Origin: Pirellulaceae bacterium
GTDB taxonomy: Bacteria; Planctomycetota; Planctomycetia; Pirellulales; Pirellulaceae
DNA length: 64,000 nucleotides
Direction: 5' to 3'
Assembly: GCA_020852965.1 (NCBI GenBank)
Contig: JADYZV010000009.1
Coordinates: forward strand, 62,001 to 126,000
Made by a program: the position numbers and the translations under genes. Within the stretch, counting starts at the first letter, position 1. Every line of letters begins with the position of its first letter. The notes below the pieces were generated by a model. The model saw nothing but the letters and a program-made list of their open reading frames with translations. It had not been told where the DNA came from and did no database searches. This document shows, in pieces, positions 1 to 60,527 of the stretch.

Positions 1-1397
<1,397 letters not shown>

Positions 1398-1412
1398 TTA
1401 GCACTGTTGCTT

Positions 1413-1437
1413 AATGTGGCTCGACGCTCCGCGTCGT
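1413..1437 (+). repeat. Family A palindromic repeat between atpD and atpC
   Basis: A 25-bp copy starting AATGTGGCTCGACGC and ending GCGTCG, able to form a short hairpin (CGACGC / GCGTCG). The same unit recurs at 4091, 6937, 14762, 17229, 20895 and 60427. A partly complementary stretch (TTCACGACGC, 1512-1521) matches the reverse of 1431-1440, so a longer fold in the atpD-atpC transcript is possible. The rest of 1398-1635 shows nothing else recognisable. Confidence 0.8.
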
Positions 1438-1635
1438 GAATCCTTGGCGCACTCAATTAGGCCGTAATGAGCACCGCGCTGTTGCGGTGGCCTAGCATTT
1501 TGTTTCGCGAGTTCACGACGCTGCGGAATAATTTGCTGTCATCATTTCATTTACCATTTACATCACTCCACGCCGTAACAGCCGCGGAGCTCGCTCGCGA
1601 GCCCTCCCATTACCGTCCATTCGCCAGAGTCTACT

Positions 1636-2025
1636 ATGAGTACTATCCAATGCGTCGTCGTAACCCCTGAACGCACCGAACTGGATGTCCAAGCCGAGTC
1701 GGTAACGGTTCCGCTCTTCGATGGCGAAATGGGAATACTCAAAGGGCACAGCCCCTTGGTCGGTAGACTCGGCTATGGCCTGCTGCGCATCAAGAGTGCA
1801 GGCAGCTCACAGAACTACTTTGTGGAAGGTGGCTTTGTCCAAGTCGCCGACAATGTGGTGTCGGTACTAACCGACAATGTAGTCGACGCCAGCCAGCTCA
1901 ATAGCACCGCTGCTGCTCAGGCCATGCACGACGCCTTGGCGCTCCCTACCGATCTGCCCGAGCTCAAAACGACGCGCGACAAGGCAATCGACCGCGCCCG
2001 CGCCCTATCGCGCATCACCGCCTAA
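1636..2025 (+). CDS. atpC: F1F0 ATP synthase subunit epsilon
   Basis: Epsilon subunit of F1 (129 residues), which joins gamma to the c-ring and can inhibit ATP hydrolysis. The N-terminal beta-sandwich is recognisable (CVVVTPERTELDVQAESVTVP, then DGEMGILKGHSPLVGRLGYGLLRI and FVEGGFVQVADNVVSVLTD). The C-terminal part (about residues 85-129) is helical and alanine-rich as expected. The length is normal for the family. Position after atpD supports the call. Only the long repeat-containing leader before it is odd. Confidence 0.95.
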   Translation: MSTIQCVVVTPERTELDVQAESVTVPLFDGEMGILKGHSPLVGRLGYGLLRIKSAGSSQNYFVEGGFVQVADNVVSVLTDNVVDASQLNSTAAAQAMHDALALPTDLPELKTTRDKAIDRARALSRITA

Positions 2026-2235
2026 TATTGACGCTCGGCCCGTCCGACGGTTGATTCTACCACCGACTCTGTAGAATGACCTGCGGGCAAGAGATCCAGA
2101 ACCTAGGTGCTCGGAGGCAGGGCAAGCATTCAGCATCGCGCATTTCGGTTGTCCTGGCATCCGTCCACCCAACACCTAGTTGATTTCACATCGCATTCAC
2201 TAGTGCTCTGTCCACCTTAGTTTTTGAGGGTGGTT

Positions 2236-2302
2236 GTAGTGGACGAGGTTACGGGTCCCAAACGGTTAACGATTTAAATGGACTCGTAACCTCGTCCACT
2301 AC
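2236..2302 (+). repeat. Family F inverted repeat (GTAGTGGACGAGG / CCTCGTCCACTAC)
   Basis: Left arm 2236-2259 (GTAGTGGACGAGGTTACGGG...) and right arm 2280-2302 (the reverse complement, ending CCTCGTCCACTAC) enclose a 20-bp loop. It lies in the 367-bp gap between atpC and the next gene. Related copies are at 7993, 29572, 33108, 46545, 47675, 54277 and 59326. A terminator role after atpC is possible, but there is no clear T-tract. The remainder of 2026-2392 shows nothing I recognise. Confidence 0.85.
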
Positions 2303-2392
2303 CCTCAATTTGAATGTGATTGAAGCACCAGCGGAGGCTAGTGAACGAAATCCTTTCAGGGGTTTGCTGAATTTGGATGATTTTAGGTCTTC

Positions 2393-5011
2393 ATGCAATC
2401 AACCCTCCGTCATACGCAAACAAAAACAGCCCTGTATTGGCTTGCCTTGATCGCATGCTTGGCTTGGCTGTTTTATCCCGGCCTGATTGCGTCCGAGGTT
2501 CCCACCTTTCGCGATGCTTATCATTTCTATTATCCACAAGCCGTGTGGCTGGAGCGCTGCGCACAGCAGGGTGACTACTTCCCGACTTGGAATCCCAGCG
2601 AGGGATTAGGCGTATCGATAGCTGGCCAGCCGAGCGCGGCGCTTTACTATCCGCTGCGTCCCGTATGGTGGCTACCGGGCCTCGACACAGCTCAGAAATT
2701 CTCGATATTCATCGTCGCCCATTTACTGATCGCAGCCATCGGCATGCGTCTAGCCACTCGCAGGTTGGGCCTCTCCGATCAGGCCGCTTGGCTAGCTGCC
2801 ATCAGCTACTCGCTTAGCTGCCCGGTCTTCTTTCAGCATACGAACCTAATCTACCTGTGCAGTGCCGCTTGGATCGGCTTTGCGCTTGGCGCGGTCTTCA
2901 CCGCAATGCAGGCCACTGGCCGGCGCGAGCTGCTGAGTTCCTGCATAGCCTTTGCCGCCGCAGCCAGCCTGATGCTACTAGGCGGTGACCCGCAAACGGC
3001 CGTCAACGCCTTCATCATGGTTGGAGTCTTATTCGTTGCGGTCCATGCGCAGTGTCGCTGGTCAGCGCGAAAACTCCACCTATCAGCACCTCAGACGCCG
3101 AAAGAATCTTCACGCGATTTCGACGTGACCGGTACGCACCTGGGCTGGCTGGTAGCAACCGCGGTCCTATTCACAATCCTCAGTTTTGTGCAATGGCTGC
3201 CCGCCTGGCGCTGGGCCAGCCACAGTGGCCGAACGCAGAGGAATAGTACCGAGCAAACTTTGAGAACCGTTGCGACTGCTACGGCACAATCTCAGGGTTC
3301 ATCCCAAATGCCTGCCGTGGATGCAGTATTGCGTGAAAGCAGTCCGCCACGCCATCATCGCTATGATTTCAGCCTGTCCCCTTGGCACCTACTTACCTGC
3401 GTTTGGCCAACCGCAGGCGGCCACTACTTGCCTAGCAACTCTCGAGTTTTCGCGGCGATTCCCGCCGAGGGCCGCATGTGGATTCCTTCACTCTATTTCG
3501 GCTGCTGGCCCTGCCTGCTAGTCTTGCTAGCAGGTTATCAGCGAAGCACACGGACGCGTTTGCTGATTGTCGTCGCCGGCTTTGCGCTGCTCGCATCGTT
3601 TGGCAACTATGCGATCCTCTGGCTATTGCGAGAAATTCTCGGCGGCGTGGGCCTCACTTCGCTGGCGCAGCATTTACCCGCCGACCACGTCGGCAGCCTA
3701 GCCTGGTTGCTCAACACATGCCTACCAGGCTACTCCATGTTCCGCTATCCCGCCAAATGGACAGTCTGGTTCGTGGCCGCTGCCAGCCTAATTGCCGCAT
3801 TGCAATTCGATCGCCTGTCAGCGGAGAATTTGCGGCAATCGACGCGGCGATTCAGGCGGACGTTTGAGGTTCTCTCGCTGGTGGGGTTGGTGATGGCCGG
3901 GAGCCTGTGGATTGCCGCTATCGCAGGCTACTCGTTAGACGCCTGGCTGTCTCAAGTCGCTCCCGACCGGTGGCTTGGGCCCCCTAACACTCGCTCCGTT
4001 GCGCACTCGCTGGTTATCGCTTGCTTGATCACTCGCCTATCATTCCTCGTAGGCTCAATGGAATCTGAACAGTGGAAACGGTTCCTACCCAATGTGGCCC
4101 GACGCTCCGCCGTCGGTTCAAGCACTCCAAAAAAATTCCTACCCAATGTGGCCCGACGCTCCGCCGTCGGTTCAAGCACTCTGAAAAAATTCCTACCCAA
4201 TGTGGCTCGACGCTCCGCCGTCGGTTCAAGCACTCGAAAAAAATTCCTACCGAGTATCGCGCTCCTTACGCTGGTTGAAATGACCCTAAGTGCCAATAAA
4301 TGGACCAGCTTTCTCCCCGCACCGACCGCCCCGCTCGATTCACTGTCGCAATTTTATAATAGCGCACCAGCTCATGCACCTCGCTTCACGTCCGGCATAC
4401 CGTTCGTGTGGGCCAACCACAGCCAAGCCGACTTGCTGGGGGACCGTTTTATACGATCACGGCAGAGTTTCGAAATAGACCAAGCTCGCTATCAACAGGC
4501 TTGGAGGCTGGGGAAGCTCGGGCTACTATCCGATGCTAGAAGTTTAAACGCAACGCAATCGATCGAACCGTTCGAGTTGGCTCAACTGCGCACTTGGCTC
4601 AGTCGCCATGACCGTCTGCTCGGCGATCAGCCTGACGTCGACCAGGTACTGCGCGAGTTGGGAGTAACGCATCGTCTGCTGCGCACGCGATTCGACAGCC
4701 AGCCCAGTCAATTCACGTGGCAGCCGGTCGACGCTCCACGACCACTCTGTCAACTGTCGACAATTGGTCTAGAGCAAGTGATCAAACAGCCGGAGATCGA
4801 TTGGCACTGGCCCAGCCCCGACCAGCTCGACGTCCACATCGCCGCTCCCCAAGCCGCCATGCTGCTCATCCGCCAGACCAACGACGGCGGCTGGTTGGCT
4901 CGTAATCAACGAGACAAACTCCTCGATATTGACGAAAAATCTATGTTTATCGAAATCCCACTTACCAACGAAGACTCGCAAGTCAAACTCTCGCGCAAGT
5001 GGTTTCGATAG
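2393..5011 (+). CDS. Large GT-C/YfhO-like integral membrane protein with in-frame repeat array
   Basis: An 872-residue protein with a hydrophobic N-terminal part of many transmembrane segments (about residues 12-555) and a soluble C-terminal region (about 620-872). Near the N-terminus the pattern FRDAYHFYYPQ...GDYFPTWNP...GQPSAALYYPLRP resembles YfhO-type and other GT-C membrane glycosyltransferases, which use lipid-linked sugars on the outer face of the inner membrane. That function is inferred from pattern only. Residues 564-617 are three copies of an 18-residue unit ([15 protein letters not shown] plus three residues), encoded by family A repeat DNA. The gene stands alone between atpC and an oppositely oriented gene. 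The start at 2393 precedes the first membrane segment directly. Confidence 0.75.
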   Translation: MQSTLRHTQTKTALYWLALIACLAWLFYPGLIASEVPTFRDAYHFYYPQAVWLERCAQQGDYFPTWNPSEGLGVSIAGQPSAALYYPLRPVWWLPGLDTAQKFSIFIVAHLLIAAIGMRLATRRLGLSDQAAWLAAISYSLSCPVFFQHTNLIYLCSAAWIGFALGAVFTAMQATGRRELLSSCIAFAAAASLMLLGGDPQTAVNAFIMVGVLFVAVHAQCRWSARKLHLSAPQTPKESSRDFDVTGTHLGWLVATAVLFTILSFVQWLPAWRWASHSGRTQRNSTEQTLRTVATATAQSQGSSQMPAVDAVLRESSPPRHHRYDFSLSPWHLLTCVWPTAGGHYLPSNSRVFAAIPAEGRMWIPSLYFGCWPCLLVLLAGYQRSTRTRLLIVVAGFALLASFGNYAILWLLREILGGVGLTSLAQHLPADHVGSLAWLLNTCLPGYSMFRYPAKWTVWFVAAASLIAALQFDRLSAENLRQSTRRFRRTFEVLSLVGLVMAGSLWIAAIAGYSLDAWLSQVAPDRWLGPPNTRSVAHSLVIACLITRLSFLVGSMESEQWKRFLPNVARRSAVGSSTPKKFLPNVARRSAVGSSTLKKFLPNVARRSAVGSSTRKKFLPSIALLTLVEMTLSANKWTSFLPAPTAPLDSLSQFYNSAPAHAPRFTSGIPFVWANHSQADLLGDRFIRSRQSFEIDQARYQQAWRLGKLGLLSDARSLNATQSIEPFELAQLRTWLSRHDRLLGDQPDVDQVLRELGVTHRLLRTRFDSQPSQFTWQPVDAPRPLCQLSTIGLEQVIKQPEIDWHWPSPDQLDVHIAAPQAAMLLIRQTNDGGWLARNQRDKLLDIDEKSMFIEIPLTNEDSQVKLSRKWFR
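4082..4243 (+). repeat. Three tandem 54-bp units containing family A repeat, inside a CDS
   Basis: Copies of AATGTGGCYCGACGC...GCCGTCGG start at 4091, 4145 and 4199 with exact 54-bp spacing. The filler between them (TTCAAGCACT, then AAAAAATTCCTACCC) is almost identical each time. Because 54 is divisible by 3, the array stays in frame and adds 54 residues to the membrane protein. A fourth partial filler (TTCCTACC) follows at 4244. Confidence 0.95.
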
Positions 5012-5115
5012 CCGAGGACCACGCCGGTACTTATTCTTCGCGGCAGATCAAATTGGTGGAGTCGGCTTGCAATTACCCAAGAACAACTGACCGGCGGAGC
5101 GGTCAGCGACGATGG

Positions 5116-5583
5116 CTACAATTTCATAAACCTCACGCAGACCGGATTGGCGATTTGCGTCTTGGCCTCAGTCGGAATTAATTCGCCCGTCGCGCTATCG
5201 ATGCGAAAGACGCAGACATTCCCGCCCGACTGATTTGCGACCAGCATGAATCGTCCTGTCGGATCGATGGCGAAATTGCGTGGTGTTTTGATTCCGGTCG
5301 CCTGGTGTCCAACGGGAGACAATTCGAAGCTATCGGGATCGACCGCATAGATGAATTTTTCGTTGGGATGGAAGGCCAAGAACGTAGGACTGTTGGTCTT
5401 TCCCGCCAGTTTGACGGGCGATAGAGAGCCATCGTGCGCGTTGAATTCGCAGTGGTAGATCCCTTGACTGCCATCGTCCGTGTAGGTTCCCAAGTAGACG
5501 CGAAAGCGTTCTTGCCCCTGAGTCGCACAATGAACAGATAGCGAAAACAACACAACCGTCAGCCAATAGCTGCAGCGCAACAT
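5116..5583 (-). CDS. Internally deleted lactonase-type beta-propeller protein
   Basis: The 155-residue product begins with a secretion signal (MLRCSYWLTVVLFSLSVHC) and a first propeller blade (FRVYLGTYTDDGSQGIYHCEF, then SPTFLAFHPNEKFIYAV). This is typical of the 6-phosphogluconolactonase-like seven-bladed lactonase family. After about residue 95 it jumps to what looks like the last blade of the same family (GIKTPRNFAIDPTGRFMLVAN, GNVCVFRIDSATGEL) and ends. Family members are usually 350-400 residues, so about 200 central residues are missing. The frame is intact, but a complete propeller cannot form, so this is probably a decaying remnant. Confidence 0.7.
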   Translation of the reverse strand: MLRCSYWLTVVLFSLSVHCATQGQERFRVYLGTYTDDGSQGIYHCEFNAHDGSLSPVKLAGKTNSPTFLAFHPNEKFIYAVDPDSFELSPVGHQATGIKTPRNFAIDPTGRFMLVANQSGGNVCVFRIDSATGELIPTEAKTQIANPVCVRFMKL

Positions 5584-5621
5584 CGATAGACCTCATGGAG
5601 AACTAGATTCAAAGGAGCATT

Positions 5622-5644
5622 GTAGCTCGGTGGTCCCCCACCGA
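5622..5644 (+). repeat. Family D palindrome (GTAGCTCGGTGGT / ACCACCGAGCTAC type)
   Basis: TAGCTCGGTGGTCCCCCACCGAA is a short hairpin-forming unit upstream of the lactonase remnant. The same unit occurs inside a coding region at 30389-30412 and as a cluster at 41819-41900. Confidence 0.75.
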
Positions 5645-5652
5645 ACTCTTAA

Positions 5653-5972
5653 ATCTACTGACACTCCTCGCTGAACGCCACCATCCTTTTCAATTTTTCG
5701 TGCTCGTGCTCAGTGAAACGGTACTCGTGCTCGTAATCGTAATCGTAAGGGGTAGCAGAGACCAAACAAATCTTCGACGCTGCTCGCCTCAATATTCACT
5801 CGCATGACGTTTAAATTCGAGAGTGCTTCCGAATCACCCGTAAGACAGGTTGCTGCATTCGATTACGAGCACCGTTTCACTGAGCATAAGCATGAAGATG
5901 CAAGCAAAGGTGGGTTTCTTGTAGATTAGCTCCGGCGAATACGGTGGTGTTCAACGAGGAGTGTCAATCTAC
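5653..5972 (+). repeat. About 320-bp element with two nested pairs of inverted repeats
   Basis: The outer arms are 5653-5684 (CTGACACTCCTCGCTGAACG...) and 5942-5972 (its near reverse complement, GGTGGTGTTCAACGAGGAGTG...). The inner arms are 5707-5739 (TGCTCAGTGAAACGG...CTCGTAATCG) and 5860-5886 (CGATTACGAGCACCGTTTCACTGAGCA in two halves). The left inner arm carries a 6-bp insertion relative to the right one. The element fills most of the 444-bp gap 5584-6027 and has no obvious coding potential, so it looks like a non-autonomous mobile element or a long RNA hairpin. Confidence 0.75.
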
Positions 5973-6027
5973 TATATCAAATCCAGCCAAGTCACGGCGG
6001 GGACCGCCGTGCTGCTTTACTTTCTAA

Positions 6028-6993
6028 CTACTTCCGCGACGCGGTGCGTTTGGTTTGCGGCATCAGTTCTTCTGTGAATTTGGCATCGTAGCGCAGTGAG
6101 GTCGCCGGCCCTCGGAAGCCGACGACTTCATCGCTCCAGGTCAATTGCTTACTTAGCATGCGGCCATTGTCGATGTCGAACTTGATTTCACCTTTGCTCA
6201 GTTGCTGTATCAACTGCGACTCGGTGGCGGGGTCTTTCACTGGGGTCAGCGCCTGCGATTCGATGCGAATGGTGGCCACACCGGCGGAGACTTTCTCGAG
6301 CGTATACAACTCGCGGACTTTGATCGTCTTGTGAACACCATTTTCCGATTTGACTCGAGCATCCCTGGGCACACTCCACTGGGAACCAACCGCCACGGCT
6401 TCTTCAGGCAATGGCAGCGTGAGCTCGCCCATGCCAAGCTGCGGATTCTTCAGTTCGCTATCGCGCTTGATGACTTGCCCTTGCGGATTGATCGTCACCG
6501 TCGCCAGCGGCTTCGAAACCGTCTCGGCAACATGTTTGAACATGTCAGGAGCTTCGGTATCGGTCAGGCTGTTGTATTTCAGCTCTTCTCCTTCGCCGAC
6601 CGATTGCGCCAGTTCGACGGATGTAATGCGATACTCGAAGGTCATCTCTCCTGTCGCATTGACGGACGATACCTCCCAGACCTTCTCGGTGATTGTACGT
6701 GAGCTGCTCGATTCTTCATGTTCGGACATTTTCGTCCGGGTGTTGGCCAAGTGGACCACTTTGGAGACGAGCTGTTCGCCGGACTTGAGTTTGTAGCGCA
6801 ACAAAACCTTGGAACCGCTGGAGGCCGACTCGACTTTTGCCTGCGCGGAAACAACGTCTGCGAGAAAAGTCGTACATAGACTTAGGATCGCCACGACCGT
6901 CGCGGGCCGTCGAGCGAGGTTAATAAAAGCCGCAACCGACGCGGAGCGTCGGGCCACATTAATAACAGCCTCGCGCGAGAATGGAATCGCCAT
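6028..6993 (-). CDS. Secreted protein of unknown function with repeat-derived N-terminus
   Basis: A 321-residue protein. The ATG at 6993 is chosen because AAGGAGG (7001-7007 on the complement) sits 7 bases upstream; the TTG at 6996 is less likely. Residues about 30-50 (TVVAILSLCTTFLADVVSAQA) form the hydrophobic core and cleavage region of a signal peptide. The first 30 residues (VINVARRSASV, then INLARRPATV) are translated from two family A repeat copies, whose arginines now form the signal peptide n-region. The mature part is beta-rich (VLLRYKLKSGEQLVSKVVH, later ATVTINPQGQVI and LPEEAVAVGSQWSVP). It resembles planctomycete exported proteins of the DUF6263 kind, but I cannot assign a function. 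Confidence 0.75.
   Translation of the reverse strand: MAIPFSREAVINVARRSASVAAFINLARRPATVVAILSLCTTFLADVVSAQAKVESASSGSKVLLRYKLKSGEQLVSKVVHLANTRTKMSEHEESSSSRTITEKVWEVSSVNATGEMTFEYRITSVELAQSVGEGEELKYNSLTDTEAPDMFKHVAETVSKPLATVTINPQGQVIKRDSELKNPQLGMGELTLPLPEEAVAVGSQWSVPRDARVKSENGVHKTIKVRELYTLEKVSAGVATIRIESQALTPVKDPATESQLIQQLSKGEIKFDIDNGRMLSKQLTWSDEVVGFRGPATSLRYDAKFTEELMPQTKRTASRK
6898..6962 (-). repeat. Family A repeat copies at the 5' end of a CDS
   Basis: On the minus strand AATGTGGCCCGACGC...GCGTCGG lies at 6962-6937. A more diverged copy (AACCTCGCTCGACGG...) follows at 6921-6898. Both lie within the first 35 codons of the secreted protein gene. Confidence 0.8.
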
Positions 6994-7032
6994 CAATTGG
7001 CCTCCTTGCCAAAAAAGTTTAATTAATCTTGC

Positions 7033-7953
7033 TTAACGCTTTGGTTCGCGAGGGTTGCCACCCCAGCCAAGCTTATCACGCAGGGTGCGATACTCGCCTT
7101 TTTCTGGAATGCTGATCATCTTGAATGACACAGGCGCCTTGCCGATTCGGTAGCAATCGCCATCAGCCAAACTGCCGAGCACGCGACCATCAAAAACTGC
7201 TGACACCGATTCGTGGCCTTGGCGAACCACCATTTCAAACGTACGATCGGCCCGATCCACCACTGGTCGCAACGTCAAGGTATGTGGACTGATGGGGCTG
7301 ATGACCACTGCCTGCAAGCGACGTTGCAGAATGGGTCCGCCAGCAGACAAATTGTGAGCCGTCGAACCGACCGGCGTGCTGATGATCAAGCCATCACAAC
7401 TGTAAGTAGACGCCAATTCGCCGTCGACGTAAAGATCGATCTGCAGCATTGAATAGGGAGGTCCTCCCAAAATGGCAGCCTCATTGAGCGCTAATTGATA
7501 GGCCAACGGAGAGGGCGGAAGCTCACCCGCCGGCGTTCCCCGCTGACGTTGCGCAGCCCGCACAATAGCGCACTGCAACATGAGGTGCTCGTCGATTGGG
7601 TATTTACCCGCACAAACTTCAGGCCAAATAGCCCCCAACTCATCTTCGCCCAGTGCAGCCAAAAACCCCAGCCTGCCCAAGTTGACTCCAATGACAGGCT
7701 TCTGATGGAGCCCCATTCTTCGTGCGGCGGAGAGGATCGATCCGTCCCCACCGAGCACTACGCACAAGTCGACGTCGGTCAGGGCGAAGTCGAACGATTC
7801 ATCTTGGTCGATCGCCACGATGTCGGCTGACCGCGCCAGGATCGATTCGAGCTTCTGCAATTCTGCGCGCACCCGGGGGCGATTGACCGACGCTAGTACC
7901 GCTACACGTGGGCGAGAGCGCCCCAAGGCTGGCCAAATCGCTTCAGTTTGCAT
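7033..7953 (-). CDS. nadK: NAD kinase
   Basis: A 306-residue enzyme phosphorylating NAD to NADP with ATP or polyphosphate. The family motif GGDG is at residues 68-71 (VVLGGDGSILSAARRMG), followed by GVNLGRLGFLA, a catalytic-site NE pair in ALNEAAIL, and the glycine-rich GLIISTPVGSTAHNLSAGG block. A typical C-terminal region ISPHTLTLRPVV follows. The length is normal. It begins with ATG at 7953. Upstream lies a cluster of family F repeats and then dxs on the same strand, so it may be the last gene of the isoprenoid operon or separately transcribed. Confidence 0.95.
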   Translation of the reverse strand: MQTEAIWPALGRSRPRVAVLASVNRPRVRAELQKLESILARSADIVAIDQDESFDFALTDVDLCVVLGGDGSILSAARRMGLHQKPVIGVNLGRLGFLAALGEDELGAIWPEVCAGKYPIDEHLMLQCAIVRAAQRQRGTPAGELPPSPLAYQLALNEAAILGGPPYSMLQIDLYVDGELASTYSCDGLIISTPVGSTAHNLSAGGPILQRRLQAVVISPISPHTLTLRPVVDRADRTFEMVVRQGHESVSAVFDGRVLGSLADGDCYRIGKAPVSFKMISIPEKGEYRTLRDKLGWGGNPREPKR

Positions 7954-7992: not shown

Positions 7993-8109
7993 GTAGTGGA
8001 CGAGGCTACGAGTCCGTGTGCATAGTGGACGAGGCTACAGCCCGTGTGTGTAGTGGACGAGGTTACGAGTCCCTTTTACCGGTCAGGGACTCGTAACCTC
8101 GTCCACTAC
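7993..8109 (+). repeat. Cluster of four family F repeat copies
   Basis: Three direct copies of (G)TAGTGGACGAGGYTAC begin near 7993, 8032 and 8050. A final inverted copy (GGGACTCGTAACCTCGTCC...) ends at 8109. The last two form a strong hairpin with a loop of about 14 bases between dxs and nadK, which could act as a transcript end or RNA stabiliser. Confidence 0.85.
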
Positions 8110-14761: not shown

Positions 14762-14888
14762 AATGTGGCCCGGCGCTCCGCGTCGGAAATCCCCGACCGA
14801 CTGCGATTAAACGCGGCTACCGTCGCCAGACGGTAGACATAGACGTAGCTACCGTCGCCCAGCGCCAGACTTCTGCAGTCTGGCGACC
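14762..14888 (+). repeat. Family A and family G repeats between ubiB-like gene and queC
   Basis: A family A copy (14762-14787) is followed by a family G unit: GGCTACCGTCGCCAGACGG at 14815, a second GTAGCTACCGTCGCC at 14845, and a perfect small palindrome CGCCAGAC...GTCTGGCG at 14863-14885. The rest of the 391-bp gap to queC shows nothing else clear. Confidence 0.7.
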
Positions 14889-16132: not shown

Positions 16133-17230
16133 ATGCCTGATCATCGCGCCGAACTCAACCTGCCACACATTGCCGGTCGCGGTGCGCAAACCAATCCCAA
16201 CAATCGCTTTCACAAGATTCACCTGCAGGCCGACTACGAACAGCTCGAAGGGGACGATGAATTCTTCGAAGACTTGAGCAAGGTCAGCACGGAATACTTC
16301 GAGGACGACTCGCAATCGATCCTGTCCGAAAACAACAGTCCCGATATTCCCTTTCGCTACAGCCTCAATCCTTACCGCGGCTGTGCACACGGCTGTGCCT
16401 ACTGCTACGCGCGCCCAACCCATGAGTACTTAGGCCTCAGTGCGGGTGTGGATTTCGAATCGAAGATTTTTGTTAAGACGCGCGCAGCAGAACTTCTGCG
16501 TGAAGAACTCAGCAAGAAAAGCTGGCAGCCCGAGCCGATCATGATGTCGGGCGTCACCGACTGTTACCAACCCGCTGAGCGACAATTCCGAATCACGCGA
16601 GCCTGTTTGGAAATTGCGCGCCAGTTCGGTCAACCCATTGGCATCGTCACCAAGAATGCACTCATCACGCGCGATATCGACATCCTCGCCGATCTGGCTC
16701 AGCATAACTTAACACGAGTTGCCGTGAGCCTCACCTCGCTCGATCAATCGCTCACCCGAGTGCTCGAACCTCGCACCAGCTCACCGGCTTCGAGGCTACG
16801 AGCCATACGGGAACTTTCCTCGGCGGGGATACCTGTGATTGTCATGACGGCACCGATCATTCCGGGGCTCAACGACAGTGAAATCCCCTCGCTGTTGCAA
16901 GCCGCCCGTCAGCACGGTGCAACCTTCGCCGGTTACACGCTATTGCGATTGCCGTTGACGGTGAAGCCTGTCTTTCTCGATTGGTTAGCCAAGAACGTCC
17001 CCAGCCAGCAAGCCAAAATCGAACACTTGATCCAGCAGACGCGCGACGGGGGCCACAATCAATCCCAGTTCGGTCAGCGCATGCGCGGCAGCGGAGCGTT
17101 CGCCGAGCATTTGAGTTCGACATTCAGAATCTTCGCCCACAAGCATCAATTGCAGCGCAAGCCGCCGCCACTCGACTGCTCCCGCTTCGCCCTTCCCGCC
17201 GCTGCCACCCCACAACTTTGGCTCTTCTAA
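16133..17230 (+). CDS. PA0069-type (SplB-like) radical SAM protein
   Basis: A 365-residue iron-sulfur enzyme. The cluster motif is NPYRGCAHGCAYCYARPTHEY (C-x3-C-x2-C), which would bind a 4Fe-4S cluster and S-adenosylmethionine. Other conserved pieces are MMSGVTDCYQPAE, GIVTKNALITRDIDIL, SLTSLDQSLTRVLEPR and MTAPIIPGLND. This matches the family annotated PA0069/SplB-like, whose members resemble spore photoproduct lyase but whose substrate is generally unknown. It follows queC on the same strand after 300 bp of repeats, probably as an independent unit. Confidence 0.88.
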   Translation: MPDHRAELNLPHIAGRGAQTNPNNRFHKIHLQADYEQLEGDDEFFEDLSKVSTEYFEDDSQSILSENNSPDIPFRYSLNPYRGCAHGCAYCYARPTHEYLGLSAGVDFESKIFVKTRAAELLREELSKKSWQPEPIMMSGVTDCYQPAERQFRITRACLEIARQFGQPIGIVTKNALITRDIDILADLAQHNLTRVAVSLTSLDQSLTRVLEPRTSSPASRLRAIRELSSAGIPVIVMTAPIIPGLNDSEIPSLLQAARQHGATFAGYTLLRLPLTVKPVFLDWLAKNVPSQQAKIEHLIQQTRDGGHNQSQFGQRMRGSGAFAEHLSSTFRIFAHKHQLQRKPPPLDCSRFALPAAATPQLWLF

Positions 17231-17361
17231 TGTGGCCCGACGCTCCGCCGTCGGTTTCTCCTTAATGTGGCCCGACGCACCGCCGTCGGATTCTCCTTAA
17301 TGTGGCCCGACGCTCCGCCGTCGGATTCTCCTTAATGTGGCCCGACGCTCCGCGTCGGATA
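17229..17361 (+). repeat. Four tandem family A repeats, 35-bp period
   Basis: Copies start at 17229, 17264, 17299 and 17334. Each has AATGTGGCCCGACGC...GCCGTCGG followed by an identical filler (TTCTCCTT). The first copy overlaps the stop codon of the radical SAM gene (TAATGTGG). The array differs from the other tandem loci in period. Confidence 0.95.
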
Positions 17362-19448: not shown

Positions 19449-21020
19449 TCAACCGATCAACTCGCGGACGACGTATCCCTTAACATCGGTAAGTCGCATA
19501 TCGCGACCGCCGAAGCGATATGTCGATCGCGTGTGATCAACTCCCAGCAGGTGCAGCATAGTCGCATGTAGATCGTGTACTTCCATACGATTTTCAATCG
19601 CCTTGTAGCCCCATTCATCCGTGGCACCGTAGACGGTTCCCGCTTTCACGCCGCCACCAGCCATCCAAATCGTAAACCCGTACGGATTGTGATCACGCCC
19701 ATCGCTGCCTTGTGCAAACGGTGTGCGACCGAACTCGCCCGCCCAAACGACTAGGGTATCATCGAGCAATCCTCGCTGCCGCAAGTCCTTCAGCAGGGCG
19801 GCTATGGGTTGGTCGACCGCCCGGGCGTTGTTCTCGTGCCCTTGCTTTAGATGACTATGTTGATCCCAACGATCCCCGCCAACTTGGGGACAAGTCAACT
19901 CGACGAACCGCACGCCGCGTTCAATCAAACGTCGCGCCAGCAGACATTCGGCCGCATAAATCCGCGTCGGCTCGAACGTCGACTCGAAACCATACTGACG
20001 TCGCACATACGCCGGCTCGTCCGCCAGCGACATCAATTCTGGAACGGCCATTTGCATGGCGTAAGCCATTTCATAGTTTTTGATCGCCGACTCGAGGTTT
20101 TCGTTTCGACCCAATTCATCAAGTCCGATATTGTCGAGCTCACGCACCAACGCCAGCTTGCTTTGCTGTTGCTCGAAGGTCGCTTCGGTGCGCGCGATAT
20201 TAGCCACTGCCGAACCAGCAGGTTTGAAGACCGAGCCTTGATAGCTGGCCGGCAAGAAGCCCGATCCAAAACAATCAAGCCCACCTGGCGGAATCAAGCC
20301 ACCGTTGATCGCCACAAAACCAGGCAAGTTTTCATTCTCGCTCCCCAACCCGTAGTTGATCCATGCCCCCATGCTCGGTCGTCCCTGCAAGCCGCTACCG
20401 GTATGCAAGAAGTAATTGGCAAAAGTATGCTCGGGGAACTCGGAGACCAGCGAACGCACTACCGTCAATTCGTCGGCGCAAGTGGCAATGTGCGGGAACA
20501 AATCGCTGATTGGCAAACCCGATTGGCCATACTGTCGAAACTTCCAGGGGCTGGCCAGGACCTTGCCGTTATTATTGAACTGTGTCGGCTCGACGGAAAA
20601 AAAGCGACTCGGATCTTCGCCGTGAAATCGATCCAGCAACGGTTTGGGATCAAACGTATCCACTTGCGAAGGCCCACCGTCCATATACAGAAATATGACT
20701 CGCGTAGCACGCGGTCGATGGTGCAATCCCGGCGCCGCGTGATTGCCCACCACGATCCCGGACTCGCCGACAATACTACTCTCCGGCTCAAGGCCAAATG
20801 CGCGTTCTCGCAGCAAAGCAGCCAAGGCAATCCCCCCCAACCCGCTGCCAGCCTGGCATAGCATTTCGCGCCGCGTGCGCGGTGCCGCCACGGCAATTTG
20901 GCTCGACGCTCCGCGTCGTGAGTCCTGCAGCATTTCGCTCTGTGCGAGCGGCACTCCCTGAGCGCGCTGGCAAGGATAAGGCGACGCCCATGACTCTGTG
21001 GTTTTTTGATGGATATTCAT
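19449..21020 (-). CDS. DUF1501 family protein
   Basis: A 523-residue protein of the DUF1501 family, which is expanded in planctomycetes and structurally related to sulfatase/alkaline phosphatase-like hydrolases; its reaction is not established. A twin-arginine-like signal is seen well inside the N-terminus (RTRREMLCQAGSGLGGIALAALL, about residues 48-70). Family blocks are VIFLYMDGGPSQVDTFDPK, GLGSENENLPGFVAI, FVELTCPQVGGDRWDQH and VVWAGEFGRTPFAQGSDGRDHNP. The start codon lies 6 bp after the PSD1 gene, so the two are cotranscribed. Residues about 33-43 are encoded by a family A repeat in reverse orientation. Confidence 0.9.
   Translation of the reverse strand: MNIHQKTTESWASPYPCQRAQGVPLAQSEMLQDSRRGASSQIAVAAPRTRREMLCQAGSGLGGIALAALLRERAFGLEPESSIVGESGIVVGNHAAPGLHHRPRATRVIFLYMDGGPSQVDTFDPKPLLDRFHGEDPSRFFSVEPTQFNNNGKVLASPWKFRQYGQSGLPISDLFPHIATCADELTVVRSLVSEFPEHTFANYFLHTGSGLQGRPSMGAWINYGLGSENENLPGFVAINGGLIPPGGLDCFGSGFLPASYQGSVFKPAGSAVANIARTEATFEQQQSKLALVRELDNIGLDELGRNENLESAIKNYEMAYAMQMAVPELMSLADEPAYVRRQYGFESTFEPTRIYAAECLLARRLIERGVRFVELTCPQVGGDRWDQHSHLKQGHENNARAVDQPIAALLKDLRQRGLLDDTLVVWAGEFGRTPFAQGSDGRDHNPYGFTIWMAGGGVKAGTVYGATDEWGYKAIENRMEVHDLHATMLHLLGVDHTRSTYRFGGRDMRLTDVKGYVVRELIG
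20895..20919 (+). repeat. Family A repeat inside DUF1501 coding region
   Basis: AATTTGGCTCGACGCTCCGC...GTCG lies on the plus strand, antisense to the gene, within the codons before the Tat-like signal. It shares the GTGAGTCC-type 3' flank with the copy at 1413. Confidence 0.8.
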
Positions 21021-21026
21021 GACATT

Positions 21027-26640: not shown

Positions 26641-26750
26641 TTTGGAGTGCGGCGATTCATCGCCGCTTTGGCCTCTTCTTTGGAGCACGGCGATTTATCG
26701 CCGCTTTGGCCTCTTCTTTGGAGTGCGGCGATTCATCGCCGCTTTGGCCT
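26641..26750 (+). repeat. Three tandem family C repeats, 38-bp period
   Basis: Units TTTGGAGTGCGGCGATTCAT...GCCGCTTTGGCC start at 26641, 26679 and 26717. Each contains the small palindrome GGCGATTCATCGCC; the second copy has TTTATCG. Related copies are near 58020-58125 and, inverted, at 58262-58300. They occupy the 317-bp gap between the DUF4058 and esterase genes. Confidence 0.9.
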
Positions 26751-47642: not shown

Positions 47643-47674
47643 GACACTTGTGCTTTGCCAAGAATCAATTTTGG

Positions 47675-47793
47675 GTAGTGGACGAGGTTACGAGTCCCTT
47701 GGTAGTGGACGAAGTTACGAGTCCCTTGGTAGTGGACGAAGTTACGAGTCCCTTGGATTCGCTATGCGGAAGGGCCCGCGACCTCATCCACTG
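47675..47793 (+). repeat. Family F tandem array (27-bp period) between nqrF and apbE
   Basis: Three direct copies GTAGTGGACGARGTTACGAG start at 47675, 47702 and 47729. A degenerate inverted arm (CGCGACCTCATCCACTGCTG) ends at about 47796. Confidence 0.9.
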
Positions 47794-58019: not shown

Positions 58020-58300
58020 TGGAGTACAGCGATTCTGGAGTGCGGGAACTTTGGACTGCGGGGATTTATCACCGCTTTGGCCTATTTTGGACTGCGGGGA
58101 TTCATCACCGCTTTGGCCGTCCCTATAGCTAGCAGCGGTGCTCGATGCCACGCTAAACCACCCAGTGCGAACCAAAAGGATTCGAAACAAGCGAATCAGC
58201 CAGCAACCCACTCGGCTCGATTCCGTATGGCAGCGATTAGTCCCAATCGCTGCTGACTTACCACCGGGCCAAAGCGGTGATGAATCCCCGCACTCCATAA
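58020..58300 (+). repeat. Family C repeats in the pseudopilin gene cluster
   Basis: Degenerate family C units lie at about 58017-58050 (TTTTGGAGTACAGCGATT), 58047-58080 and 58084-58118 (TTTGGACTGCGGGGATTYAT...ACCGCTTTGGCC). An inverted copy GGCCAAAGCGGTGATGAATC...GCACTCC is at 58266-58297. They fill the 345-bp gap between two pilin-like genes that would otherwise be adjacent. Confidence 0.75.
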
Positions 58301-59461: not shown

Positions 59462-60427
59462 ATGTACGATGGCGAACAATACCCACTCCCTTACGAGCAG
59501 CCCTGCAGGCGCTCACTTCAACTTCCTCACTCACGCAGGCGGCGAGCTTTTACACTCGTCGAACTGCTGGTAGTGATCGCAATTATCGGCATCCTGGTCG
59601 GCTTGCTACTTCCCGCCGTGCAGGCGGCGCGCGAGGCCGCGCGACGGTCGCAGTGCTTGAATAACTTGATGCAACTCGGCTTGGCGGTTCACCACTACGA
59701 ATTCAACTTTGAACACTTGCCAGCCGGCTGCATCAATCCCGATGGTCCCATTCGCAATGAACCGATCGGGCAGGATGTGAGCTGGATCGCGCAAATTCTG
59801 CCACAGTTCGAAGAGAGGGCCGCGTTTGAGCAATTCGATAGCGAGGCAGGTGCCTACGCGCCGAAAAACCTACCGGTCCGCCAGCATGGAATCGTTACCT
59901 TGCGCTGCCCATCGGAGCCGCGAATGCCCCGAGAGGACAAGCTGGCCATGTCGAGTTATGTGGGCTGTCATCATGATCAGGAAGCACCCATTGATGCGGA
60001 CAACCATGGACTATTATTTCTCAATAGCAAGATCCGTTTTTCGGATATTCGAGACGGTAGTACCTACACATTGTTGTTAGGTGAGGCTCCCATCACATCC
60101 GACAATTTGGGCTGGACCTCCGGCACGCGGGCCACGCTACGCAATACCAGCGGTATTGTTCCACCTCTAAGCGATCAGCAGTTGCGGGCTATCGACGAGA
60201 TGGGGATGGGAATGGGGATAGAAACCGGTAGCGAAGTTGATACCGACCCTGTGGAGAAGGAGCGTATTGAATCGCTCTACGTTGGCGGCTTTGGCAGCTA
60301 TCATACTGGCGGTGCCAACTTTGTCTTGGCCGATGGTAGCGTTCACTTTTTCAGTCAGAGCATCGATCCAAAAACATTTCGATACATGGGCAATCGCGCC
60401 GATGGCGAGATGATCGAATTGGACTAA
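59462..60427 (+). CDS. DUF1559 family pseudopilin
   Basis: 321 residues from the ATG at 59462, preceded by AGGAG (59451-59455). The prepilin signal is [22 protein letters not shown], followed by the hallmark [18 protein letters not shown]. The DUF1559 C-terminal text is [23 protein letters not shown]. This family is greatly expanded in planctomycetes (major pilin-like or substrate proteins of unknown role). The N-terminal leader before the cleavage site is long (about 27 residues). Its stop codon is part of the following family A repeat. Confidence 0.92.
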
Positions 60428-60527
60428 ATGTGGCCCGACGCTCCGCCGTCGGTTTCCGCATTCCAATGTAGCCCGACGCTCCGCCGTCGGACTCTGCTTT
60501 CCAATGTAGCCCGACGCTCCGCGTCGG
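60427..60527 (+). repeat. Three tandem family A repeats, 38-bp period
   Basis: Copies start at 60427, 60465 and 60503. The first overlaps the DUF1559 stop (TAAATGTGG); the second and third read AATGTAGCCCGACGC. The filler is GTTTCCGCATTCC or ACTCTGCTTTCC. They lie between convergent DUF1559 and nth genes. Confidence 0.95.

What the first reader, a model, noticed from the sequence alone, without database searches (positions are those of the whole stretch)
4082..4243. Interspersed palindromic repeat expanded in frame inside a membrane protein gene
The three 54-bp units carry the same family A palindrome that elsewhere lies between genes (1413, 14762, 17229, 60427). Here the period is a multiple of three and adds [19 protein letters not shown] units at residues 564-617 without breaking the frame. 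Filler is nearly identical between units, so the array arose by local amplification after one insertion. It is direct evidence that these elements invade and enlarge coding sequence.
Basis: partly seen in the sequence, partly recalled or inferred. Interest (0 to 1): 0.75.

Follow-up and report, generated by a model that had tools for sequence, protein, structure and literature searches.

The report
Mobile palindrome expanded inside a gene
A 26-base palindrome repeated hundreds of times in one bacterial genome has entered a membrane-protein gene and multiplied there without breaking the reading frame, adding 54 amino acids, and it sits in frame in other genes of this genome too; such invasions are known from other bacteria, but the target duplication and the sequence fidelity seen here are unusual.

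Summary
In detail: 3 x 54 bp (4082-4243) encode residues 564-617 of an 872-aa membrane protein. Each unit holds a sharply bounded 26-bp element (280 exact core matches in the genome, none in 14 same-genus genomes). None of 28 informative homologues has the peptide; between fixed anchors the protein measures 102 residues, 48 without the array, against 40-55 in 25 of 28. So the element entered and lengthened the gene. In 1.46 Mb sampled, 33 of 144 clusters lie in coding-like ORFs, in all six frames; 33 of 33 head-to-tail spacings there are multiples of 3 (40 of 98 elsewhere), and two more genes were checked against homologues. Intragenic palindromes are known (Rickettsia RPEs, GTAG/CGTC REPs), so this is a new variant of a known kind. 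The mobilising enzyme is unknown; no linkage to Y1 transposases and no Cas1 were found.

The parts
2393..5011 (+). Gene of the 872-aa membrane protein that carries the array (no Pfam family at E <= 1); atpD-like and atpC-like genes lie upstream (names from general knowledge of the sequences)
   Evidence: ORF; homologues in 37 of 59 relatives; no Pfam; atpC-like neighbour in 9 of 12 fetched homologous loci
4082..4243 (+). Array of three 54-bp units, residues 564-617
4091..4116 (+). Element copy 1 (A1, exact)
4145..4170 (+). Element copy 2 (A1, exact)
4199..4224 (+). Element copy 3 (A1, one difference, synonymous GCC to GCT)
4117..4144 (+). Locus-specific filler 1, 28 bp
4171..4198 (+). Locus-specific filler 2, 28 bp
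4244..4251 (+). TTCCTACC, partial fourth unit: the same 8 bases as 4082-4089 (host-flank duplication or microhomology at the ends of the amplified stretch)
   Evidence: TRF to 4251; flank alignment; not significant on its own, P 0.14 against shuffled right flank
1413..1436 (+). A3 relative (24 bp) between the atpD-like and atpC-like genes
6936..6960 (-). A2 relative (25 bp) near the N-terminus of the DUF6263 ORF
14762..14786 (+). A2 relative with one mismatch
17229..17358 (+). Array of three A1 and one A2, period 35, no ORF of 100 aa found spanning it
20895..20918 (+). A3 relative (one mismatch), antisense near the N-terminus of ORF 19452-21026 (-)
60427..60527 (+). Array of two A1 and one A2, period 38

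Best explanation
4082-4243 is a small non-autonomous palindromic element (REP-like: an 8-9-base 5' tag plus a hairpin of 6-7 bp, 24-26 bp in all) that inserted into an existing membrane-protein gene in this lineage and was then tandemly amplified to three 54-bp units by local duplication. SHOWN: the array is absent from the homologues examined, the element is a high-copy dispersed repeat of this genome, and its coding copies keep the frame. INFERRED: the element has no stop in any of its six frames, so an insertion whose total length is a multiple of three adds a tolerable peptide in a loop; insertions that shift the frame are removed by selection; once units are in tandem, slippage or unequal exchange changes the copy number in whole units. 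INFERRED from other loci of the family: the primary insertion often puts in about 36 bp (element plus about 10 bp) and duplicates about 36 bp of target, so that a later repeat unit holds host sequence as well as the element. The enzyme is unknown.
For: Homologues: 0 of 28 informative ones carry NVARRS; segment 40-55 aa in 25 of 28, 48 here without the array. Dispersed element: 280 exact core matches in the genome (135 and 145 on the two strands; reversed control 0), none in 14 same-genus genomes; with one mismatch 359, and 9 of 240 other family genomes have 1-15. Sharp edges in 180 aligned copies. Coding copies: 33 of 144 clusters in coding-like ORFs, all six frames; 33 of 33 head-to-tail spacings multiples of 3 there, 40 of 98 elsewhere; arrays 16 of 16 against 22 of 56, Fisher 5.9e-6 (partly circular, because an ORF must span the cluster). 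Test that does not presuppose the frame: where both flanks score as coding on one strand, 22 keep the frame and 1 shifts. Real hosts: Pfam domains span or bracket insertions (pseudouridine synthase, MFS, SBD_N, DUF7133, Mur ligase, ABC transporter). Two further genes: an RluD-like protein with 36-37 extra residues against 15 informative homologues, and a GluRS-like protein with 59-62 extra against 13 of 13 aligned. In the GluRS-like gene the displacement between the two copies of host sequence, 186 nt, equals the 62-residue gap of 11 of these 13.
Against: No strain-level empty site exists in the held data; the best homologue is 48% identical (another reaches 53% over part), so the insertion point is known only to within a few residues. 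Three of 28 homologues also have long segments here, so the loop tolerates insertions in general. The host duplication is only suggestive at this very locus (8 bp, P 0.14) and not detectable in the RluD-like gene (P 0.42); 120 of 135 loci fail the strict test for it. 22 of 56 other arrays also have all spacings a multiple of 3, and one cluster that the flank test calls in frame (L099 8900) has spacings 37, 38 and 39, in frame only in sum. The hairpin of the commonest form A1 is no more stable than 18 of 200 shuffles. No expression data.
Confidence: 0.85

Rival explanations
1. An old protein repeat: the three 18-residue units are a functional peptide module, and the likeness to the intergenic palindromes is secondary.
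For: The peptide is strongly basic (13 K/R, 0 D/E in 54 residues) and follows a hydrophobic stretch at 535-558, as a cytoplasmic loop of a membrane protein could. The frame that reads NVARRSAVG is the commonest of six in coding clusters, 13 of 34.
Against: 0 of 28 informative homologues have NVARRS; the same DNA occurs in all six frames in other genes and in arrays without a coding frame, so the DNA, not the peptide, is what is shared.
Confidence: 0.03
2. An ordinary RAYT-mobilised REP (IS200/IS605-type, single-strand) that inserted without target duplication; the duplicated host flanks come from later tandem duplication stimulated by the hairpin.
For: Hairpin with a 5' tag containing GTGG; 7 Y1_Tnp (PF01797) matches in the genome. 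Direct tandem arrays show that duplication of element plus flank is common here. A relative, G004, has a family of similar architecture (tag, 7-bp stem, TCC loop), mostly single (35 of 60 clusters) and with inverted (9) and direct (7) pairs.
Against: 1 of 7 Y1_Tnp loci has a copy within the flanks of up to 1.5 kb, and it does not abut the gene; another copy lies about 1.6 kb from a second match. Single-copy loci, not only arrays, carry the host duplication, with displacement 71-73 bp in 7 of 10; later tandem duplication would copy the element too. Orientation shows no firm replication-strand bias (mean skew -0.010, s.e. 0.004 at 1 kb; -0.006, s.e. 0.003 at 9 kb). The G004 family shows at most a slight excess in a similar test.
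Confidence: 0.3
3. Integration by a Cas1-like integrase: ~36-bp insert with ~36-bp target duplication, like a spacer integrated off target.
For: Sizes of insert and duplication resemble those of spacers and repeats (recalled, no call).
Against: No Cas1 (PF01867) match in the own genome, while the same search rings in 9 of 14 named control genomes. Other displacements (57, 59, 62) also occur.
Confidence: 0.03
4. The array is a chance or assembly artefact.
For: The genome is a draft of 199 contigs.
Against: The three units differ from one another, the array is internal to an intact ORF, and comparable arrays exist at dozens of loci.
Confidence: 0.02

Closest known systems
Rickettsia palindromic elements (RPE)
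   Same: Dispersed palindromes fused in frame in genes of conserved proteins (19 reading frames reported); target duplication entered as '?' in a review table (PMC2229807, passages read)
   Different: RPEs in that review are 105-146 bp and Rickettsia-specific; here the core is 24-26 bp, in another lineage, with locus-specific direct arrays and, at some loci, a ~36-bp host duplication
GTAG and CGTC REP superfamilies (Di Nocera et al. 2013, PMC3733652)
   Same: 20-40-bp tagged hairpins, some species-specific, some entirely inside ORFs; clusters encode 43-82 aa in Thauera and R. conorii; families reported in Planctomycetes; CGTC ones apparently without a dedicated transposase (abstract, passages, sections 6 and 15 and part 1 of section 17 read)
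   Different: Tag here is AATGTGGC, stem 6-7 bp, loop 3 or 6; 68 of 76 multi-copy clusters are uniformly head-to-tail, where that paper reports head-to-head dimers as predominant
YPAL / RU-2 of Yersinia
   Same: Palindromic element with target duplications of variable length, 3 to 26 bp (PMC2229807, passage)
   Different: 168 bp; the duplication here is about 36 bp with a preferred displacement of 71-73 bp
REPINs with RAYT transposases (PMC3116915, passages read)
   Same: Non-autonomous short palindrome population within one genome
   Different: REPINs are inverted doublets linked to RAYTs; here direct arrays, and no link to Y1 transposase genes was found
PARCEL repeats (PMC2996958, abstract and outline read)
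   Same: Tandem in-frame repeats whose DNA shows dyad symmetry, many in membrane-targeted proteins
   Different: PARCELs are a recurring 25-residue protein motif; here the DNA element is constant and all six frames are used

Membership tests
GTAG REP | Unpaired GTAG tag at one end | tested here: not met
   Tag is AATGTGGC, at least 96% at each of its 8 positions in 180 copies (copies were picked by likeness to the core, but the outer AA was not part of it). That GTGG is an accepted variant of GTAG is recalled, not tested.
GTAG REP | Head-to-head dimers predominant | tested here: not met
   68 of 76 multi-copy clusters are uniformly head-to-tail (the other 8 are mixed in orientation or too near the end of a stretch)
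GTAG REP / RAYT-linked REP | Association with a tyrosine (Y1) transposase gene | tested here: not met
   7 Y1_Tnp matches; 1 of 7 has one element copy in its flanks
CGTC REP | Unpaired CGTC tag, 8-9-bp stem, 4-5-base loop, short tail | tested here: not met
   Folds: stem 6 or 7 bp, loop 6 or 3, tag AATGTGGC; definition from PMC3733652 section 6
REP-like short palindromic repeat (broad sense) | 20-40-bp palindrome in high copy, dispersed | tested here: met
   280 exact core matches, both strands; hairpins of A1, A2, A3 with z -1.3, -3.7, -2.7, so for A1 the hairpin alone is weak evidence
Intragenic in-frame palindromic element (RPE-like behaviour) | In-frame insertion in genes whose homologues lack it | tested here: met
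   Three genes checked:
Intragenic in-frame palindromic element (RPE-like behaviour) | Host protein made and working | not testable with these tools
   No expression or proteome data
Cas1 / casposon integration product | Cas1 integrase in the genome | tested here: not met
   0 matches
Rfam family | Match above gathering score | tested here: not met
   0 matches in window 1200-7500

The most novel reading that the evidence does not exclude
A distinct class of mobile palindrome: a ~36-bp unit (26-bp invariant element plus ~10 bp) that integrates with a ~36-bp target duplication, giving a 72-bp step that happens to be a whole number of codons, and whose 26-bp core is actively kept identical in place (by re-copying or homing into existing copies, or by DNA-level selection) while the target copies beside it decay. 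Coding sequence is thereby a standing niche for a selfish element that is open in all six frames.
Probability: 0.3. Interest if true: 0.82.

Novelty: new variant of a known kind. Interest (0 to 1): 0.6.

Why it matters
Intragenic palindromes are known from Rickettsia and some REP-rich genomes, but how they get in and how old the copies are is hard to say. This genome offers many independent insertions, some with a readable host duplication, so insertion length, target duplication and age can be measured locus by locus. The contrast of 18% divergence in the duplicated host sequence with 1% in the element beside it poses a testable question: what keeps a 26-bp sequence identical in hundreds of places, inside genes and out, in six different reading frames?

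Tried and rejected
RAYT as mobiliser: 7 Y1_Tnp matches, 1 of 7 with a copy in its flanks; not supported. Replication-strand bias: weak, not firm. Cas1: absent. Pure tandem duplication: in 44 of 52 uniformly spaced arrays the periodic stretch is shorter than n full units, since the outer filler copies are diverged beyond the scoring used or absent; this led to the test of host flanks. The same duplication in the relative's (G004) palindrome family, by a similar test with 50-bp flanks: 6 of 59 at score 9 or more (2.15 expected, at most 5 in 20 shuffles), 3 of 59 at 10 or more (0.95, at most 3), 0 of 59 at 11 or more; so a slight excess of weak matches but none of the strong ones seen here. A fixed insert length: s ranges 0-20 in the strict set and fillers as short as 4-5 bp exist, so '36 + 36' is a central tendency, not a rule. 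Literature: the listings showed no paper on this element or on a ~36-bp target duplication by a REP-like element; only the held open-access library is covered, and only four papers were opened.
Full report
Where it lies. The window is part of a draft genome of 8.37 Mb in 199 contigs (G000).

The array. TRF gives a 54-bp period with 3.1 copies at 4082-4251. The three units encode residues 564-617 of an 872-residue membrane protein (2393-5011) without Pfam family. Pairwise the units differ at no more than one synonymous codon in the element and one non-synonymous codon in the filler. The array follows a hydrophobic segment at 535-558 and is strongly basic (13 K/R, no D/E), so it probably sits in a loop.

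Homologues lack it. Of 59 relatives, 37 have a match (its tally of 38 of 60 counts the own genome). The 29 non-own loci returned, each from a different genome, gave 29 homologous ORFs, aligned; matches in the other 8 genomes were not aligned. One (L019) does not reach the region. Between two anchors the segment is 102 residues here and 40-55 in 25 of 28; the exceptions are L012 (74), L017 (92) and L038 (86); none of the 28 has NVARRS. Without the array the segment here is 48. An atpC-like gene lies upstream in 9 of 12 fetched loci; two contigs (L137, L139) are too short to tell, and L130, the stretch of L017's genome G004, lacks it, so that homologue is not shown to be syntenic.

Other repeats in the same loop. 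The long loop of L017 contains a different palindrome with 114 matches (up to 2 mismatches) in its own genome G004. The long loop of L012 contains 24-26 bp that recur at four other places in G006; it was not shown to be a mobile element. L038 was not tested.

The element. 180 copies aligned by the core give a 26-bp block with sharp edges, AATGTGGCCCGACGCTCCGCCGTCGG, followed by a weak preference over about 7 bases. Two shorter forms (A2, 25 bp; A3, 24 bp) have a 3-base loop; all fold as a tag of 8-9 bases plus hairpin, but the fold of A1 is matched by 18 of 200 shuffles. Genome-wide there are 280 exact core matches and 0 for the reversed control. None of 14 same-genus genomes has an exact match; allowing one mismatch, the own genome has 359 and 9 of 240 other family genomes have between 1 and 15. 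The element has no stop in any of its six frames; so have 1060 of 4000 random genomic 26-mers, so that by itself is not remarkable.

How far it enters genes. They hold 284 copies (220 A1, 38 A2, 26 A3; 188 exact) in 144 clusters. A hexamer model trained on long ORFs places 33 clusters inside coding-like ORFs; two of these are weak (window 14762, a 133-aa ORF, and window 20895, N-terminal). All six frames occur: 13, 5 and 2 sense, 8, 5 and 1 antisense (34 entries, one cluster counted twice). In these clusters 33 of 33 head-to-tail spacings of up to 130 bp are multiples of 3 (one longer pair, of 159 bp, is left out); in the other 111 clusters 40 of 98 are. By array it is 16 of 16 against 22 of 56, Fisher 5.9e-6. 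This is partly circular, since an ORF must span the cluster. A test free of that asks only whether 180 bp on either side score as coding on the same strand: of 143 clusters, 22 keep the frame, 1 shifts, 1 has opposite strands, 119 do not have two coding flanks. Among 3000 random positions the figures are 1484, 34, 68 and 1414. So elements are depleted in genes and the survivors are in frame, as selection would leave them. Two of the 22 (L086 3945, L099 8900) are not among the 33; L099 has spacings 37, 38 and 39, in frame only in sum.

Host genes are real. The 33 clusters lie in 31 ORFs. 28 of them were scanned and the window's array gene; two window ORFs were not scanned. 24 of the 28 match some Pfam family at E <= 0.001 (none: L046, L083, L107, L111:1632-2966), and the window's gene matches none. 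The PseudoU_synth_2 match of L069 (32-223) spans insertion 118-144; the SBD_N match of L059 spans 202-210; the MFS match of L040 spans 248-257; the DUF7133 match of L071 spans 478-486. Others fall between domains (Mur ligase L052, ABC transporter L050, PSCyt2/PSD1 proteins L074 and L113). For L069, 16 of the 19 non-own loci returned were aligned; one is truncated and the other 15 lack 36-37 residues. For the GluRS-like L112, 13 of 19 were aligned (all 13 same-genus loci returned for it) and all lack 59-62 residues.

Host sequence is duplicated around some insertions. In 67 single-copy loci, the 45 bp left of the element match the 80 bp right of it far more than in shuffled pairings (10 against 0.0 loci at score 12 or more). 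After dropping clusters of mixed orientation or near an end, 135 loci remain (67 single, 68 array). With restricted geometry (left copy within 8 bp of the element, right copy starting within 22 bp) 15 of 135 qualify, against 0.18 (at most 1) in 50 shuffles. The displacement in the 10 single-copy cases is 57, 59, 62, 71, 72, 72, 72, 73, 73, 73. Without a threshold, the mean identity of left and right flanks peaks in singles at 48 bp from the element's end (0.289 against 0.261, robust s.d. 0.008), with 44-47 next and 72 and 80 nearly as high (0.28), and in arrays at 46 (0.300 against 0.258, s.d. 0.010). 46 bp plus the 26-bp element is the 72-bp displacement. By locus, 10 of 67 singles reach 60% identity over 30 bp (0.3 expected), 7 of the 10 at 45-48; of 68 arrays 8 do, 5 of them at 45-47 (no control run for arrays). 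120 of 135 loci do not pass the strict test, so the duplication is absent, short or decayed there. In the GluRS-like gene the two host copies read EQLGDFVIAR and EQRADFPIAH; their displacement of 186 nt equals the 62-residue gap of 11 of 13 homologues, so there the right-hand copy belongs to what was inserted. In the window array only the 8-bp TTCCTACC is shared, not significant on its own; in the RluD-like gene nothing is detectable. A similar test on the palindromes of G004 gives a slight excess at low scores (6 of 59 against 2.15) and nothing at 11 or more, so the method does not produce the strong matches by itself.

The element is kept while its surroundings decay. In those 15 loci the host copies differ at 83 of 455 positions (18.2%) and the elements from their consensus at 6 of 592 (1.0%). 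Within arrays, in 53 neighbouring unit pairs at 35 loci, elements differ at 35 of 1374 positions and fillers at 216 of 1142; fillers are the more diverged in 31 loci, elements in 1, 3 ties. Pairs with fillers of unequal length, under 9 bp, or under 55% identical were dropped, and elements were detected with at most 4 mismatches; the mismatch counts 188, 64, 20, 8, 4 for 0 to 4 show that few copies lie near that limit. Two readings remain: DNA-level maintenance of the element, or error-prone synthesis of the host copy and fillers at the time of insertion. Against maintenance everywhere: L070 has six copies that share local changes (2-4 mismatches each).

Mechanism. Shown: dispersed high-copy palindrome; lineage-specific in-frame gain in this gene; in-frame arrays in many genes. 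Inferred: an unknown enzyme inserts the element, often with about 36 bp of target copied; tandem units then vary by slippage or unequal exchange; selection keeps multiples of three. The Y1 transposase matches of the genome are not linked to the copies, and no Cas1 is found.

Known kin. The behaviour is that of Rickettsia RPEs and of intragenic GTAG/CGTC REPs (PMC3733652, PMC2229807); membership in the GTAG or CGTC superfamily is not met on tag, stem and arrangement. YPAL elements have target duplications of 3-26 bp.

Noticed in passing
window 20895-20918, ORF 19452-21026 (-): An A3 copy lies just upstream of a twin-arginine-like start (TRREMLCQAGSGLGG; motif recalled) with a partly duplicated host stretch at the family's usual distance (R = 45, 60% identity): the N-terminus itself may have been duplicated.
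   Followed up: partly
window 6936-6960 (-): An A2 copy encodes INVARRSAS near the N-terminus of a DUF6263 protein, followed by a similar INLARRPA stretch; start codon uncertain.
   Followed up: no
window 2220-2310, 7994-8072, 47674-47756: A second dispersed palindromic family (GTAGTGGACGAGGTTACGAGTCC and its inverse), in tandem with period 27-28 at the latter two; not tested for target duplication.
   Followed up: no
window 26641-26750 and 58050-58118: A third tandem palindrome, TTTGGAGTGCGGCGATTCATCGCCGCTTTGGCC and a variant, periods 38 and 36.
   Followed up: no
L017 / L130 (G004): The homologous loop in a same-genus genome carries an inverted pair of that genome's own palindrome, tag GGTGC plus 7-bp stem plus TCC loop, the same architecture as A2.
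   Followed up: partly
L043 9143-9186: Element truncated after 18 bp and followed at once by a full element (AATGTGGCCCGACGCTCC-AATGTGGC...): an 18-bp in-frame internal duplication inside a thioredoxin/trypsin-like ORF.
   Followed up: no
L085 8060, 15241, 16959: Element copies next to another repeat (CCCGCTTGTCGGGCATGAGCCAAAGTTTT or close to it), part of which has become array filler at 8060.
   Followed up: no
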